Assembly: GCF_005938085.1 (NCBI RefSeq)
Contig: NZ_SMZK01000001.1
Coordinates: 1,116,001 to 1,180,000, forward strand
Length of the DNA stretch: 64,000 nt
Reading direction: 5' to 3'
Origin: Haloterrigena sp. H1
Lineage (GTDB): Archaea; Halobacteriota; Halobacteria; Halobacteriales; Natrialbaceae
The translations under genes were made by a program, and so were the position numbers. The notes below the pieces were generated by a model. It made no database searches. It saw only the letters and a program-made list of their open reading frames with translations, and had not been told where the DNA came from. This document shows positions 5,321-46,873 of this stretch, piece by piece; within the stretch, counting starts at the first letter, position 1; each line of letters opens with the position of its first letter.

Positions 5321-7516
<2,196 letters not shown>

Positions 7517-7688
7517 CTTTTCTATGGCAAAAGTAATCTTATGAACCCGCGAGATTTTATCAGCGATTGGATCGTGTCGTGCGTTCAGTCCACTCGTCAA
7601 GACCCGTCTCTCAGTGCGCCGAGTCCGTGTATCGAACGACCGACGCCATCGATAGCTCGTATAAGCAGTCGGACGAATCTGGTGAGAA

Positions 7689-7774
7689 TATAGTAGCTAC
7701 TGAAACGATTTATACACTGGATCGCTAACGCAGTCGTGCGATCAGATATACATTGACTTTCAGTGGCTACTATA
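7689..7774. repeat. Long imperfect hairpin (nested inverted repeats)
   Basis: TATAGTAGCTACTGAAA (7689-7705) and TTTCAGTGGCTACTATA (7758-7774) are inverted repeats of 17 nt with one mismatch, separated by 52 nt. A nested pair GATCGC / GCGATC lies inside. This occupies much of the 395-base gap between katG and the RimK fusion gene, both read leftward. It could be a MITE-like relic or a transcript 3'-end structure for the RimK fusion gene. I see no ORF in the gap. Confidence 0.6.
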
Positions 7775-7857
7775 GCTGTCCAAAACAACAGTTCTGTTTG
7801 CTGATTCGCTCGATATCGTTTCAGATACCGAAAACCGACGGATCGGTACTCCCCGTG

Positions 7858-9201
7858 TTACTCCTCTTCTTCGGGAGTATCGACCGCGTCACTGTCGATG
7901 CGGCGGCTGACATCGACCTGATAGTTCTCGAGGATATCCCGACCCAGCAAGACCGGGTAGTCCATGTGACCGCGATCCTCGACGCTTGCCGTGACGGTGT
8001 GTTGATTGCCGCCGACGCCGACGACGACGTCGACGACGGGACGGCTCTTGGACTGCTTGCTGCTCCCGGAGCGAATGCGGGTGATGGACTTGATCGGCCC
8101 GGCACCGATGTCGGCGGCGAGGCTCGTGTCGATGCTCGTCCGAGTCGCGCCGGTGTCGGATTTGGCGAGCACCGTTTTCGAGCCGCTGGTTCCGGAGAGG
8201 ACGACTTCTTCGGTGTAGCCGATCACTGCCGGTTCCGTATCCTGTGCCATCGCTTCCGTCGGCTGGGCCGTCGGCCGGGAGTCGTCGAGGACGTTCGAGA
8301 GGTCTCGCACGCGGTCGTCGTCGACCTCGCCGCCGGCACGTTCGATCGCGAGTTTGGCGATGTAGGGCGCGGGGCTGACCTGCGTCGCCTCGTAGAGCCC
8401 CTTGAATCCGGCCGTCGGGTTCACCTCGAGGACGAACCAGCCCTCGTCGCCTTCGACGAGGTCGACGCCGGCGTAGTCGAGATCGACGATGTCGGCCGCG
8501 CGCTGGGCCATCTCGCGGGCTTCCTCTGGGAGATCCTCGGTCGCGTCCTCGACGGAGCCACCGAGCGCGACGTTGGTTCGCCAGTCGTTGTCCGGCGCGT
8601 AGCGGTACATCGCGGCGACGACTTCGTCGCCGACGACGTAGACGCGCAAGTCGCGGTGGCGGACGTCTTCTTGGTCGACGAGTTCCTGCAGGAAGGCATA
8701 CCGGTTGCCAACCTTGGCGTTGATCGGGTCGTCGGGCCCGACTTTCCACGTCCCACCGCCGTGGGTGCCGATCGCGGTCTTGTAGACCGCCTCCTCGCCG
8801 TACCGACTCCGTGCGGCATTCAATTGATCGCCGCTTAGCGCAAGTGTGACATCGGGCGTCCGGACGTCGTTGCCCGCGAGCGCGGTTGCCGTCGAGAGTT
8901 TGTGGATCGCGGTCAACACGGAATCCGGTTCGTTGAGGGTCGGAACCAGCTGGGAGAACGTGTTGGCGAGACCCAGTTCCTCGGCGGGCTGTTCGGTGTT
9001 CGACAGCAGCATCCGATTAGCGATCACGTCGACCTCGGGCTCGAGGACGGGACTGCCGTCGGTGACGCTGATCGACGTGTTCTCCGCGCGAAGCCACTCG
9101 GTGTCGTGTCCGAGATCCTCGACGGCGTTGAGAATCGCTTTGGTTTCCTTGCTCGTATGAAGACTCAATACCCCGACGGTCACGGGATCTGCACCGGCCA
9201 T
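7858..9201 (-). CDS. RimK-type ATP-grasp ligase fused to retropepsin-like (RimB/DUF785) domain
   Basis: Residues about 1-290 form an ATP-grasp amino-acid ligase of the RimK group: N-terminal pre-ATP domain, TAIGTHGGGTWKVG for the ATP loop, and VLEVNPTAGFKG for the Mg-binding Glu/Asn. Residues about 328-430 are a separate retropepsin-like domain with the KSDTGATRTSI aspartyl-protease-type motif (Asp about 349) and a PVLLGRDIL segment. This matches the 'ATP-dependent zinc protease' RimB family that usually stands as a separate gene next to rimK. RimK adds Glu residues to a protein or small-molecule terminus; the target here is unknown. The ORF extends to ATG 9222, but a TATA-like ATACTTAT at about 9231 puts transcription near 9206, so I chose ATG 9201. 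Confidence 0.88.
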   Translation of the reverse strand: MAGADPVTVGVLSLHTSKETKAILNAVEDLGHDTEWLRAENTSISVTDGSPVLEPEVDVIANRMLLSNTEQPAEELGLANTFSQLVPTLNEPDSVLTAIHKLSTATALAGNDVRTPDVTLALSGDQLNAARSRYGEEAVYKTAIGTHGGGTWKVGPDDPINAKVGNRYAFLQELVDQEDVRHRDLRVYVVGDEVVAAMYRYAPDNDWRTNVALGGSVEDATEDLPEEAREMAQRAADIVDLDYAGVDLVEGDEGWFVLEVNPTAGFKGLYEATQVSPAPYIAKLAIERAGGEVDDDRVRDLSNVLDDSRPTAQPTEAMAQDTEPAVIGYTEEVVLSGTSGSKTVLAKSDTGATRTSIDTSLAADIGAGPIKSITRIRSGSSKQSKSRPVVDVVVGVGGNQHTVTASVEDRGHMDYPVLLGRDILENYQVDVSRRIDSDAVDTPEEEE

Positions 9202-41118: not shown

Positions 41119-42165
41119 ATGGCAAATTTTGACCTTGAAACTGCAGACGGTCGACGGGAAGCACTACGCCGGATGGTAACTATCCGGGCGTTCGACGAAG
41201 AGGCAGGGGATCGGTTCGCAGACGGCGAGATACCGGGGTTCGTCCACCTGTATATCGGTGAGGAGGCGGTCGGCGTCGGCACCTGTGCGTCGCTCGATTC
41301 AGACGACTACATCGCGAGCACGCACCGCGGGCACGGCCACTGCATCGCGAAGGGGCTCGATCCGAAGTACATGATGGCCGAACTCTACGGCAAGGCCGAG
41401 GGCTACTGTAATGGGAAGGGTGGCTCGATGCACATCGCGGACGTCGACGCCGGGATGCTCGGCGCGAACGGCATCGTCGGTGCGGGGCCGCCGATGGCGA
41501 CCGGCGCGGCGCTGTCGATCGACTATCAGGACCGCGACCAGGTTGCGGTCGGCTTCCTCGGCGACGGCGCGGTCGCCCAGGGACAGGTCCACGAGGCGAT
41601 CAACCTCGCTTCGACGTGGGACCTGCCGGCGATCTTCGTCGTCGAGAACAACCACTACGGAGAGGGGACGCCGGTCGAGAAACAGCACAACCTCGACAAC
41701 CTGAGCGATACGGCCCAGGCCTACGACATCCCCGGCGTGACGGTTGACGGCATGGATATCACTGCCGTCGCGGAGGCGGTCGCCGAAGCCCGAGAGCGAG
41801 CGCGCGCCGGCGACGGGCCGACGATGGTCGAAGCACAGACGTACCGCTACCGCGGTCACTACGAGGGCGACGAGGAGCCCTACCGCGAAGACGAGGAGAT
41901 CGAACGCTGGAAAGACCAGGATCCGATCGAATCGTTCAAAGACCGACTGATCGAGCGCGGCGAACTGACCCAGGAGGAGTTCGACGACCTCCGATCCGAG
42001 ATCGAGGCGTCGATCGACGACGCCGTCGAATACGCACAGGAGACGGACGCACCGGAAGCGAGCGCGGCCTACGAAGACATGTTCGTTGACCAGCCGCCGG
42101 AACTCGAGCGATTCGCGAACGTCGCCCGGACTGACGGCGGCGAAAACGGAGGTGACCACCGATGA
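41119..42165 (+). CDS. acoA: TPP-dependent dehydrogenase E1 alpha (acetoin/2-oxoacid)
   Basis: This 348-residue E1 alpha subunit works with E1 beta to decarboxylate a 2-oxoacid or cleave acetoin using thiamine diphosphate, passing the acyl group to lipoyl-E2. STHRGHGHCIAKGL, NGKGGSMHIADVDAGMLGAN and the TPP signature VGFLGDGAVAQGQVHEA ... VVENNHYG are present. The substrate is unsettled; the following acoX favours acetoin. The start follows a TATA-like box. The stop overlaps the E1 beta ATG as ATGA. Confidence 0.88.
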   Translation: MANFDLETADGRREALRRMVTIRAFDEEAGDRFADGEIPGFVHLYIGEEAVGVGTCASLDSDDYIASTHRGHGHCIAKGLDPKYMMAELYGKAEGYCNGKGGSMHIADVDAGMLGANGIVGAGPPMATGAALSIDYQDRDQVAVGFLGDGAVAQGQVHEAINLASTWDLPAIFVVENNHYGEGTPVEKQHNLDNLSDTAQAYDIPGVTVDGMDITAVAEAVAEARERARAGDGPTMVEAQTYRYRGHYEGDEEPYREDEEIERWKDQDPIESFKDRLIERGELTQEEFDDLRSEIEASIDDAVEYAQETDAPEASAAYEDMFVDQPPELERFANVARTDGGENGGDHR

Positions 42166-43163
42166 CTGCACAGGCAGAACTCGAACAGGAGACCGAGACG
42201 ATGACCGTACGGGAGGCGATCCGACAGGGCCTCCGCGAAGAACTCGAGCGCGACGAGGACGTCTACCTGATGGGCGAAGACGTCGGGCTCTTCGGCGGCG
42301 TCCTTGAGGTAACGGGCGGCCTCTACGAAGAGTTCGGCGAGGAGCGGGTCCGGGATACGCCGATCAGCGAGGCCGGCTTCATGGGCGCGGCGACCGGCGC
42401 GGCGGCGACGGGGACGCGGCCGGTCGTCGAGCTCATGTTCTCGGATTTCATGGGCGTCTCGATGGAACAGATCATGAACCAGATGGCGAAGATGCACTAC
42501 ATGTTCGGCGGGAAAGCTGAACTGCCGGTCACCGTCCGGACCACCGAGGGAGGTGGCATGGGCGCCGCCAGCCAGCACTCGGGGACGGTCCATACCTGGA
42601 TCGCCCACTTCCCAGGGCTGAAAGCCGTCGCTCCCGGAACCGCGGCGAGCGCGAAGGGGCTGACGAAAGCCGCCATCCGCTCGGACGATCCCGTCTTCGT
42701 CTTCGAGAACAAGATGATCTACGAACAGTCGGGCGAGGTCCCGACGGACGAGGACTATACGGTCCCGATCGGCGAGGCGGCCGTCGAACGCGAAGGTGAA
42801 GACGTCACCGTCGTCGCCACCCAGCGACTCGTCGGCGAGTCACTCGGCGTAGCCGACTCGCTCGAGGGCGACGTGAGCGTCGAGGTCATCGACCCGCGCT
42901 CGCTGTACCCGCTCGATACCGACACGATCGTCGAGAGCGTCGAGAAGACGGGCCGACTCGTCGTCGCCGACGAGAGTCCGCTCTCCTATGGCACCCACGC
43001 GGAGATCGCCACGCGCGTCCAGGAGGAGGCGTTCTTCAGCCTCGACGCACCGATCCAGCGGGTCGGCACGCCGGATACGCACATGCCGTTCAGTCCACCG
43101 CTCGAGCAGGAGGTCCTGCCCGATGACGACGATGTCAGAGCCGCGATCGAGCGGATCTCATAA
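42162..43163 (+). CDS. acoB: TPP-dependent dehydrogenase E1 beta (acetoin/2-oxoacid)
   Basis: This is the 333-residue E1 beta partner. The transketolase-like pyrimidine domain (TVREAIRQGLREELERDEDV, YLMGEDVGLFGG, RVRDTPISEAGFMGAATGAA) and the C-terminal domain (VEVIDPRSLYPLDTDTIVES) are complete. It is translationally coupled to E1 alpha by an ATGA overlap. Acetoin- and branched-chain-type E1 subunits look alike here, so the substrate comes from context. Confidence 0.9.
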   Translation: MTAQAELEQETETMTVREAIRQGLREELERDEDVYLMGEDVGLFGGVLEVTGGLYEEFGEERVRDTPISEAGFMGAATGAAATGTRPVVELMFSDFMGVSMEQIMNQMAKMHYMFGGKAELPVTVRTTEGGGMGAASQHSGTVHTWIAHFPGLKAVAPGTAASAKGLTKAAIRSDDPVFVFENKMIYEQSGEVPTDEDYTVPIGEAAVEREGEDVTVVATQRLVGESLGVADSLEGDVSVEVIDPRSLYPLDTDTIVESVEKTGRLVVADESPLSYGTHAEIATRVQEEAFFSLDAPIQRVGTPDTHMPFSPPLEQEVLPDDDDVRAAIERIS

Positions 43164-44204: not shown

Positions 44205-44271
44205 CCGGTGTCAGGGCGGCGGGCACGGGCAAAGGATTACATCGACCGTTGTGGTACCGACTCTCGCCACA

Positions 44272-44781
44272 ATGGTAAGCGACAACATTCCACAAGTGGA
44301 CGTCGAGATTCCAGAACTATCGCAGGTCGCGTTCGTCGTCGAGGACATCGACGACGGGATGGACCGGTTCGGCTCGATCCTCGGGGTCGGCCCGTGGGAG
44401 GTCTATCGGTTCGAGCCGCCGACGCTCACCGACCGGACCTACCACGGCGAATCACACGAGTATTCGATGGTACTCGCGCTCACCCAGCTCGGCGAGACGA
44501 TGATCGAGCTGATCGAACCGCTCGAGGGAGAGAGTATCTACACGGAACACCTCGAAGAACACGGCGAAGGGCTCCATCACGTCGCCTGTTTCGCCTTCGA
44601 CGATCCACACGCGGTCGTCAAGGAGTTCGAAGACGCCGGCCTGCCGGTCATCCAAAGCGGCAACTACGGCGGCACCGAGTACTGGTACTTCGACACCGCC
44701 GACGAACTCAACGGCGCGATCTTCGAGACCGCGGCGAACGTCGACGCGATGCCGGAACCGGATCGGACGTACCCGGAGTAA
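44272..44781 (+). CDS. VOC-family protein (glyoxalase/epimerase/dioxygenase fold)
   Basis: This 169-residue metal-binding protein is of the vicinal-oxygen-chelate superfamily. Two beta-alpha-beta-beta-beta units are visible (QVAFVVEDIDDGMDRFGSIL, ALTQLGETMIELIEPLEGES, GLHHVACFAFDDPHAVV, GTEYWYFDTADELNGAIFET), with His and Glu metal ligands likely at HHVA and IELIE/IFET. The substrate is unknown; lactoylglutathione lyase and methylmalonyl-CoA epimerase are relatives. ATG 44272 fits better than the earlier start. It is convergent with the E2-OsmC gene, with 28 bases between stops. Confidence 0.83.
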   Translation: MVSDNIPQVDVEIPELSQVAFVVEDIDDGMDRFGSILGVGPWEVYRFEPPTLTDRTYHGESHEYSMVLALTQLGETMIELIEPLEGESIYTEHLEEHGEGLHHVACFAFDDPHAVVKEFEDAGLPVIQSGNYGGTEYWYFDTADELNGAIFETAANVDAMPEPDRTYPE

Positions 44782-44809: not shown

Positions 44810-46633
44810 TTAGAGCCGTTCCCAGGAGAGGTCGAGTTCGAGGTCCTCTCGAAGCATCTGCGAGACGTGACAGCCCCGCTCCCCGAGGTCGACGAGCCGG
44901 TCGACGGCCTCGTCGTCTGCGTCGGTCGCGAGCCGGATCGTCGCCGCGATCTCTTCGACCGACCCCTCGTCGGGAGTCCCGTCGACGTCGACCCGAATTT
45001 CGTCGACCGACATGTCGCGTTTGCTCGCCTGGAACCTGGTACTCAGCGAGAGACACGAGGCGAGGCCACTGAGGGCGACGTCGACCGGGGTCGGGCCGGT
45101 CTCGGTGCCGCCGCTGGATTCGGGTTCGTCGTACGTCCACTCGAAGGAGCCCGCCTCGATGCGACCGTGCATTCCCTCGGGGTTCGTGGCGGTAACCGAC
45201 CGGCCGGGCATCTCTGTCTCGGCCGCACTGCCGGCCCCGCGGTCGGCCGCCTCGGCAACGTCGTCCGGAAGCAGCGGCCACGGTTCCTCGACGTAGTCGA
45301 CGAGCGTCTCGAGGAATCGAGCGGCGTCCGCGCCGTCGACGACCCGGTGGTCGAACGAGAGATCGAACGGGAGGTGGCGTCGCCATTCGATGCCGTCGTC
45401 GTCGCCACGGGTCGGCTGTTCGGTGATGGCGTCGACACCGAGGATGGCGACCTGCGGCGGGTTGATGACCGGGTCGAACGCCTCGATGCCGAGGACGCCG
45501 AGATTCGTCACGGTGAACGTCCCGCCCTGGAGATCGTCCATCGTGTAATCACCGCTGGTCGCACGGCCGACGAGGTCCCGTCGCTCGTCGGCGAGTTCGG
45601 CGAGCGATTTGCTCTCAACGTCCGGGAGTACGGGCGCGATCAGCCCCTGTTCGATATCGACGGCGATCCCGATGTTGTGTTCCTCCCAGAGTTCGTGGAC
45701 GTCGTCTTCGAACGTCGCGTTGAACGCGGGGTGATCCGCGAGCGTCGCCGAGATTGTCCGGAGGAGGACGTCCTGGACAGAGACGTCGGTCTCGAGGACG
45801 TCGTCGGCAGCGTCGGCAGCCGAAAGCAGCGCCTCGGCGTCGGCCTCGCGGTGGACGGTCACGTGGACGGCCTCGCGATCGCTCTCGCTCAGCCGCGAGG
45901 CGATCGTCTTGCGCATCCCGCCGAACGGCCGTTCCGCCGCGAGCGTTCGACTCGTCCCGCCGGTCTCGGCAGCGGCGGCCGCCTCGACGTCGTCTTCGGT
46001 GATCGCGCCCTGATAGCCGGTTCCTTCGACGGTTGTGAGATCGACACCCAGTTCGTCGGCGCGGGAGCGCGCCCGCGGTGACGCGTTCAGCTCGCCAGCA
46101 CCTTCTCCCGTCCCCTCGCTGGCCGCCCGTTCGACGTCCTCCTCGGTGATCGACCCCTGATAGCCGGTTCCTTCGACGGTCGATAGCTCGACACCCAGTT
46201 CGTCCGCCCGATCTCGGGCTCGGGGTGAGGCCTGGACTTCATCGGCTGTCGCCCCACCGGCGCTGGTATCGCCCCCGCTTGCGGCTGGTTCGGCCGTGCT
46301 CTCCTCCGGTTCCGGCTCGGACTCGGCTTCGTCGACCTCGACGTTGGCTTCGAGATCGGCTGTCGCTTCGTCCTCGAGATCGCTGATGTCGGCATCGCTC
46401 GGTGCGACGATCCCGATCGGGGTCCCCGGCGGGACCGTCTCGTCGACCTCGAGATAGGTCCGTCGCAACACGCCGTCTTCGCGGGCCTCGACTTCCCCGA
46501 TACTCTTTTCCGACTCCACTTCTGCGACTAACTCTCCCTCGGAGACGGCGTCGCCCTCATCAATCGCCCACTCGAGAAGCGTTCCGCGTTCCATCTCGAG
46601 CCCGAGTTTCGGCATCCGAACGATGTAACCCAT
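44810..46633 (-). CDS. Dihydrolipoamide acyltransferase (E2) fused to OsmC domain, with two PSBDs
   Basis: This 607-residue modular protein has a lipoyl domain at 1-78 with lipoylated Lys about 43 in VESEKSIGEV. Two tandem peripheral-subunit-binding domains follow at about 135-170 and 184-220 (each ASPRAR-x-RADELGV ... TVEGTGYQG). The CAT catalytic domain at about 232-455 has SFDHRVVDGADAARFLETL. An OsmC/Ohr domain at about 475-607 has Cys 527 and Cys 588 as the redox pair. E2 would accept acyl groups from the convergent E1. OsmC detoxifies peroxides or hydroperoxides using thiols, sometimes reduced by lipoamide. No E3 gene is seen. It starts at ATG 46633. Confidence 0.9.
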   Translation of the reverse strand: MGYIVRMPKLGLEMERGTLLEWAIDEGDAVSEGELVAEVESEKSIGEVEAREDGVLRRTYLEVDETVPPGTPIGIVAPSDADISDLEDEATADLEANVEVDEAESEPEPEESTAEPAASGGDTSAGGATADEVQASPRARDRADELGVELSTVEGTGYQGSITEEDVERAASEGTGEGAGELNASPRARSRADELGVDLTTVEGTGYQGAITEDDVEAAAAAETGGTSRTLAAERPFGGMRKTIASRLSESDREAVHVTVHREADAEALLSAADAADDVLETDVSVQDVLLRTISATLADHPAFNATFEDDVHELWEEHNIGIAVDIEQGLIAPVLPDVESKSLAELADERRDLVGRATSGDYTMDDLQGGTFTVTNLGVLGIEAFDPVINPPQVAILGVDAITEQPTRGDDDGIEWRRHLPFDLSFDHRVVDGADAARFLETLVDYVEEPWPLLPDDVAEAADRGAGSAAETEMPGRSVTATNPEGMHGRIEAGSFEWTYDEPESSGGTETGPTPVDVALSGLASCLSLSTRFQASKRDMSVDEIRVDVDGTPDEGSVEEIAATIRLATDADDEAVDRLVDLGERGCHVSQMLREDLELDLSWERL

Positions 46634-46873
46634 GGGATAGGATAGCATGAATAGGATATAAAAGGTACCGGCGGTCGGTCATCGGACAGTGATAGGTCAC
46701 GCTGACGTAATGAGGGAGAACGCGGCGTCGGCTTATCGATAATGATCTTCCGTGGCATATTATTCAATGGACGTTCATTCTTCACGAAAGATACTTGTCA
46801 ATCCATAGCAAAGGCTTTAGGCACGGTAGTGCGAAAATCCGAGTACGGTTGGCCCATCGGCCACTGATCCACT

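What the first reader, a model, noticed from the sequence alone, without database searches (positions are those of the whole stretch)
44810..46633. E2 acyltransferase with two subunit-binding domains and a fused OsmC domain
One reading frame holds lipoyl, two nearly identical PSBDs, CAT catalytic domain, then a complete OsmC domain with both redox Cys (527, 588). OsmC/Ohr peroxidases are known in some bacteria to be reduced by lipoylated proteins with Lpd. Linking OsmC covalently to the lipoyl-carrying E2 could give a self-contained hydroperoxide-reducing or osmotically induced complex. Two PSBDs would allow binding both E1 and E3 at once, but E3 is absent here.
Basis: partly seen in the sequence, partly recalled or inferred. 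Interest (0 to 1): 0.75.

Follow-up and report, generated by a model that had tools for sequence, protein, structure and literature searches.

The report
E2 acyltransferase carrying an OsmC domain
Many salt-loving archaea carry a central-metabolism enzyme (the E2 core of an acetoin-dehydrogenase-like complex) with an extra redox domain of the OsmC type fused to its end; where species have lost the dehydrogenase, the OsmC domain is kept but the lipoyl attachment site is lost every time, so the two halves seem to work independently rather than as one lipoyl-driven peroxide-destroying machine.

Summary
Window 44810-46633 (-) is one open frame of 607 aa: lipoyl domain with its lysine (K43), two E3/E1-binding domains, an intact CAT domain (H429xxxD433G) and a C-terminal OsmC domain with C527/C588. 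It is not an assembly artefact: the same fusion is in 49 of 391 sampled haloarchaeal genomes, usually beside E1-alpha, E1-beta and an AcoX-like gene. None was seen outside haloarchaea.

The new result is a set of natural deletions. In 11 proteins the E1/AcoX/PSBD/CAT parts are gone and one lipoyl-OsmC protein remains, with its promoter-like sequence kept where checked. The neighbouring KorAB tree needs 7 such events in Natrialbaceae (5 or more forced). All 11 lost the lipoyl lysine (51 of 51 CAT-bearing fusions keep it); all keep both OsmC cysteines. Other lineages keep the complex without OsmC, or have OsmC as a separate gene beside a CAT that lost its catalytic His.

So OsmC is selected independently of the dehydrogenase and of its own lipoyl arm. 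Peroxidase chemistry itself is unproven: the Ohr catalytic Glu is absent. New variant of known kinds.

The parts
44810..46633 (-). E2-OsmC fusion gene, 607 aa, start ATG at 46633 (MGYIV...)
   Evidence: N-terminus MGYIV conserved in relatives
46656..46663 (-). TATA-box-like TTTTATAT about 26 nt upstream of the start codon; fits a leaderless transcript from the gene's own promoter
   Evidence: a similar CTTTTAT/CTTTTCC box at the same distance upstream of lipoyl-OsmC genes L094, L106, L041; function inferred
46409..46633 (-). lipoyl domain, residues 1-75; lipoyl lysine K43 at 46505-46507
   Evidence: Pfam PF00364; K at this site in 51 of 51 CAT-bearing fusions, 0 of 11 CAT-less ones
46118..46231 (-). 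peripheral subunit-binding domain 1, residues 135-172
   Evidence: Pfam PF02817, two stretches
45983..46090 (-). peripheral subunit-binding domain 2, residues 182-217
   Evidence: Pfam PF02817
45272..45934 (-). CAT acyltransferase domain, residues 234-454; catalytic H429RVVD433G
   Evidence: Pfam PF00198 7.1e-67; AF2 model Z about 20-23 to E2 cores
44813..45199 (-). OsmC domain, residues 479-607; C527 (45053-45055) and C588 (44870-44872)
   Evidence: Pfam PF02566; homologous domain in L106 model Z 12-14 to Ohr/OsmC structures
41119..42165 (+). E1-alpha (2-oxoacid/acetoin dehydrogenase type)
   Evidence: Pfam PF00676 2e-94, NCBIfam TIGR03182 372 bits, just under cut-off
42162..43163 (+). E1-beta
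   Evidence: Pfam PF02779/PF02780
43176..44204 (+). AcoX-like NAD-kinase-fold protein
   Evidence: Pfam PF01513 2.2e-10; AcoX name by gene context
44251..44781 (+). VOC/glyoxalase_4 protein, part-time member of the cluster
   Evidence: Pfam PF13669; present in L061, L062, L063, L069, L121-L123, L125

Best explanation
The gene encodes the E2 core of an acetoin-dehydrogenase-like complex (E1-alpha/E1-beta/AcoX in the convergent operon, E3 from elsewhere) with an OsmC-superfamily thiol redox domain fused behind CAT. The E2 part works in the usual way: E1 acylates the lipoyl arm on K43, the PSBDs hold E1 and E3, CAT hands the acyl group to CoA, and E3 reoxidises the arm. The OsmC domain runs its own Cys527/Cys588 chemistry, most likely reduction of an organic peroxide or related oxidant with a disulfide intermediate, and does not depend on the lipoyl arm of its own chain; its reductant is some other cell thiol or a lipoyl group in trans. 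The fusion places OsmC on the complex but neither half needs the other, which is why either is repeatedly lost. Shown here: architecture, conservation, purifying selection, repeated separability, loss of the lipoyl lysine with the dehydrogenase. Inferred: acyl substrate, OsmC reaction and reductant.
For: Catalytic residues of the E2 domains and the OsmC Cys pair intact. E1ab-AcoX adjacent in most fused loci. CAT-less lipoyl-OsmC genes, eight of eleven at the same AroC-PHP-KorAB position, with no remnants of E1, AcoX, PSBD or CAT. Lipoyl lysine 51/51 in fused, 0/11 in CAT-less, replaced by S, A, T, G, R or H. At least 5 independent collapses forced on the KorAB tree; 8 changes by parsimony on the OsmC tree. 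OsmC Cys pair kept in all. In collapsed proteins OsmC dN/dS about 0.19-0.27, lipoyl remnant about 0.28-0.45. Unfused orthologous complexes exist, and in Haloterrigena OsmC is a separate gene beside E1. The collapsed genomes examined keep another E1/E2.
Against: The fusion is widespread and under purifying selection, which suggests that being joined has some value. The Ohr catalytic Glu is V/I/P in all 23 aligned members and Arg is mostly absent, so peroxide chemistry is uncertain. A related esterase-OsmC fusion showed no peroxidase activity (PMC5113044). Collapsed lineages could have changed reductant after losing the dehydrogenase, so they do not exclude lipoyl-OsmC coupling in the intact fusion.
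Confidence: 0.5

Rival explanations
1. Self-contained lipoyl-dependent peroxidase: NADH via E3, or E1 with its substrate, reduces the lipoyl arm on K43, which swings to the fused OsmC and reduces its Cys527-Cys588 disulfide after peroxide attack.
For: Lipoyl arm and OsmC Cys pair coexist in all CAT-bearing fusions but one; Ohr and OsmC are reduced by lipoylated proteins plus Lpd elsewhere (cited in PMC10332631; PMC5962072); Ohr-dihydrolipoamide structures are among the structural neighbours of the homologous L106 domain (6ebg, 6ebd).
Against: All 11 lipoyl-OsmC proteins lack the lipoyl lysine although the genomes examined keep a main E1/E2 complex; OsmC is separate in Haloterrigena; catalytic Glu of Ohr absent.
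Confidence: 0.25
2. Redox switch or regulator: OsmC senses oxidants or persulfides and adjusts E2/E1 activity or assembly rather than detoxifying anything.
For: Both Cys conserved, catalytic Arg/Glu of Ohr not conserved; fusion to the core of the complex.
Against: OsmC outlives the complex it would regulate in at least five independent lineages; unfused complexes do without it.
Confidence: 0.12
3. Structural role: the OsmC homodimer links E2 trimers or replaces the usual two-fold contacts of the E2 core; the Cys pair is secondary.
For: Ohr/OsmC proteins are tightly folded homodimers (PMC5962072) and the domain sits right behind the C-terminal PWPLL segment of CAT.
Against: Orthologous E2s end a few residues after CAT and need no OsmC; OsmC persists without CAT; both Cys retained in every member.
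Confidence: 0.1

Closest known systems
Dihydrolipoyl acyltransferase (E2) of 2-oxoacid/acetoin dehydrogenase complexes
   Same: Lipoyl-PSBD-CAT order, lipoyl lysine, HxxxDG, E1-alpha/E1-beta neighbours
   Different: Two PSBDs in tandem and an extra C-terminal OsmC domain
Acetoin dehydrogenase system AcoABCX; Haloferax volcanii oadhAB3 (HVO_0669/HVO_0668)
   Same: AcoA/AcoB-type E1 and an AcoX-like gene in one cluster; HVO_0669/0668 are 54/47% identical to B. subtilis AcoA/AcoB, with no substrate identified (PMC8305020)
   Different: OsmC fusion; orthology of the window E1 with HVO_0669/0668 and its substrate were not tested
Ohr/OsmC thiol peroxidases (lipoyl-dependent peroxidase)
   Same: OsmC fold (homolog L106, Z 12-14) and the two cysteines
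   Different: Ohr catalytic Glu replaced by V/I/P in all 23 aligned members, Arg in 21 of 23; fused to E2
OsmC plus incomplete glycine decarboxylase complex of Trichomonas hydrogenosomes (Nyvltova 2016, seen only as a citation)
   Same: OsmC-family protein working with parts of a lipoyl-using complex
   Different: Separate proteins there; here fused, with evidence that the attached lipoyl group is not required
Esterase-OsmC fusions (EstRM family, PMC5113044)
   Same: C-terminal OsmC domain on an unrelated enzyme; function of OsmC unknown
   Different: Partner is a serine esterase; no lipoyl group

Membership tests
E2 dihydrolipoyl acyltransferase | Lipoyl domain with modifiable lysine | tested here: met
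   PF00364 and K43 in ESEKS; lipoylation itself not testable here
E2 dihydrolipoyl acyltransferase | PSBD and CAT fold with HxxxDG | tested here: met
   PF02817 x2, PF00198; H429RVVD433G; AF2 Z about 20-23 to E2 cores
E2 dihydrolipoyl acyltransferase | Partner E1 genes | tested here: met
   E1-alpha and E1-beta in window and in most fused loci
E2 dihydrolipoyl acyltransferase | Assembly into 24-/60-mer core and acyl transfer to CoA | not testable with these tools
   needs purified protein
OsmC superfamily (PF02566) | OsmC fold, Pfam score over cut-off | tested here: met
   58 bits against 27.5; fold of the homologous domain in L106 Z 12-14 to Ohr/OsmC
Ohr/OsmC thiol peroxidase | Peroxidatic and resolving cysteines | tested here: met
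   C527 and C588, invariant in the family
Ohr/OsmC thiol peroxidase | Catalytic Glu ten residues before the peroxidatic Cys (Glu51 of XfOhr) | tested here: not met
   position 517 is V, and V/I/P in all 23 members; Asp/Glu one residue on
Ohr/OsmC thiol peroxidase | Catalytic Arg (Arg19 of XfOhr) | tested here: inconclusive
   aligned position is Arg in 2 of 23 only, but the loop alignment is weak
Ohr/OsmC thiol peroxidase | Hydroperoxide reduction with lipoyl reductant | not testable with these tools
   biochemical assay needed
Acetoin dehydrogenase system | AcoA/B-type E1 with AcoX-like gene | tested here: inconclusive
   E1-alpha hits TIGR03182 just under cut-off and the NAD-kinase-like gene fits AcoX by context; substrate unknown

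The most novel reading that the evidence does not exclude
OsmC is a second acceptor for the lipoyl arm: it takes electrons (or the acyl group) directly from the E1-loaded arm, making a dehydrogenase that can bypass CoA. Haloterrigena would be the extreme case, with E1, lipoyl lysine and PSBDs kept, a CAT that lost its catalytic His and Asp, and OsmC as the neighbouring gene.
Probability: 0.1. Interest if true: 0.85.

Novelty: new variant of a known kind. Interest (0 to 1): 0.6.

Why it matters
It is a conserved fusion, widespread in haloarchaea, between central carbon metabolism and a thiol redox domain; no description of it was found in the papers searched. It comes with a ready-made evolutionary experiment: several independent collapses in which the dehydrogenase and the lipoyl site vanish and OsmC stays. 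That makes the question whether lipoyl groups feed OsmC-type enzymes in the cell directly testable, and gives a handle on OsmC-like proteins without the Ohr active site, whose activity is unknown.

Tried and rejected
Assembly or frameshift artefact: rejected, same open join in about 50 genomes. Lipoyl-OsmC as ancestral form or one spread allele: disfavoured, its members are scattered among fused sisters on two trees and the lipoyl domain is decayed. Remnants of E1/CAT at collapsed loci: none convincing. Fusion outside haloarchaea: no convincing fused frame in the phylum sample, in the genome-contig scan (26 loci; most carry haloarchaeal names, L111 is titled only Euryarchaeota; L104, L110 and L111 are MAGs) or in plasmids; more distant bacterial forms were not searched. 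Sign test for linked loss of CAT and lysine on starred branches only: 3 of 3 pairs, too few for significance. First alignment A1 was too diverse for the contig scan. Osmotic induction: no data. Composite-gene and fusion papers checked in main text do not mention it; their supplements could not be read.

Full report
What is there. Window 44810-46633 (-) is a single 607-aa frame with Biotin_lipoyl 5-74, two E3_binding domains, 2-oxoacid_dh 234-454 and OsmC 509-602. The lipoyl lysine is K43, the CAT motif H429RVVD433G, and the only two cysteines are C527 and C588, both in OsmC. The gene converges on E1-alpha, E1-beta, an AcoX-like NAD-kinase-fold gene and a VOC gene; on the other side lies KorAB. 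A TATA-like TTTTATAT lies about 26 nt upstream of the start codon, so the gene probably has its own leaderless promoter (inference). An E3 candidate and the main E1/E2 with a probable lipA-type gene upstream (named by eye, no family search) are on contig C3.

Is it real and how common. Searching the OsmC part in 391 haloarchaeal genomes gives a fused-length frame in 49 (my count from the table). Named hosts include Natrinema, Natronococcus, Natronorubrum, Halobiforma, Halogranum, Halegenticoccus, Halalkalirubrum and Natribaculum. OsmC and CAT are under similar purifying selection within Natrinema (Nei-Gojobori, crude). No fused frame was convincing outside haloarchaea in the phylum sample.

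Five arrangements. (F) Fused: lipoyl, usually two PSBDs, CAT, OsmC, mostly beside E1ab-AcoX. (U) The same complex with an E2 that ends a few residues after CAT and no OsmC; 11 of these form one clade nested among fused relatives on the CAT tree, best read as loss of OsmC. (A) Haloterrigena, four genomes: E1ab-AcoX kept, OsmC a separate gene next to E1-alpha; in the three with an unbroken E2 frame, lipoyl lysine and two PSBDs are intact but CAT reads ARAIGG instead of HRVVDG. (B) Eleven lipoyl-OsmC proteins without PSBD, CAT, E1, AcoX or VOC; eight of them sit at the same AroC-PHP-KorAB position. (N) L058: lipoyl lysine and PSBD lost, CAT and OsmC kept, no E1 nearby, an apparent intermediate.

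The key test. The lysine is present in 51 of 51 F proteins and in 0 of 11 B proteins, where S, A, T, G, R or H stands instead; both OsmC cysteines are present in all. The B proteins are not one lineage: the OsmC tree needs 8 changes and the tree of the neighbouring KorAB proteins needs 7 for eight B loci, with at least 5 forced by well-supported branches. In B proteins the lipoyl remnant evolves faster relative to synonymous change than OsmC. The promoter-like box and start codon are kept in L094, L106 and L041, so the lipoyl remnant may persist simply because it carries the start of the gene (inference). A formal sign test using only starred branches has 3 pairs and is underpowered.

What it means. 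If the attached lipoyl arm were the reductant of OsmC, at least some lipoyl-OsmC proteins should have kept the lysine, since the B genomes examined still have another E1/E2 complex. None did. The arm follows the dehydrogenase, not OsmC. This does not exclude coupling in the intact fusion, because collapsed lineages could have switched reductant.

OsmC chemistry. The AF2 model of the homologous lipoyl-OsmC protein L106 matches Ohr/OsmC structures at Z 12-14 and lipoyl domains at Z up to 14; its alignment held the fused relatives, so the fold of the decayed lipoyl part is biased towards them. The full window model supports the CAT fold; its OsmC N-terminal part is low-confidence. The Ohr catalytic Glu is replaced by V/I/P in all 23 aligned members, and the Arg position is Arg in only two. 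Ohr/OsmC relatives without established activity are known (PMC5962072), and an esterase-OsmC fusion showed no peroxidase activity (PMC5113044). Peroxide reduction is therefore the likeliest but unproven reaction.

Known or new. E2 and OsmC are known families, and lipoyl-dependent reduction of Ohr/OsmC is published (as cited). Searches of the paper library found no description of this fusion. I rate it a new variant of a known kind.

Noticed in passing
L133:5853-7998 (Haloterrigena-group genome G181): A fully split E2: E1-alpha, E1-beta, then an 87-aa stand-alone lipoyl protein (6896-7159) and a 266-aa stand-alone CAT without PSBD (7198-7998). CAT matches in frames of similar size occur in many haloarchaea.
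   Followed up: partly
L045:11610-13139, also L044 and L049: Haloterrigena E2 with intact lipoyl lysine and two PSBDs but CAT motif HRVVDG changed to ARAIGG, beside intact E1ab-AcoX; apparently a catalytically dead acyltransferase.
   Followed up: partly
L120-L127: Orthologous E2s with three tandem PSBDs; PSBD copy number varies from about one to three in this family.
   Followed up: no
L046:2976-4465 and L131:6908-7916: E2 reading frame appears broken between lipoyl and later domains (frameshift, decay or assembly error).
   Followed up: no
L115 (G000:C1:1522725-1523450): Weak CAT-like match in the window's own genome, in a region with rhodanese- and DsrE-like frames (named by eye).
   Followed up: no
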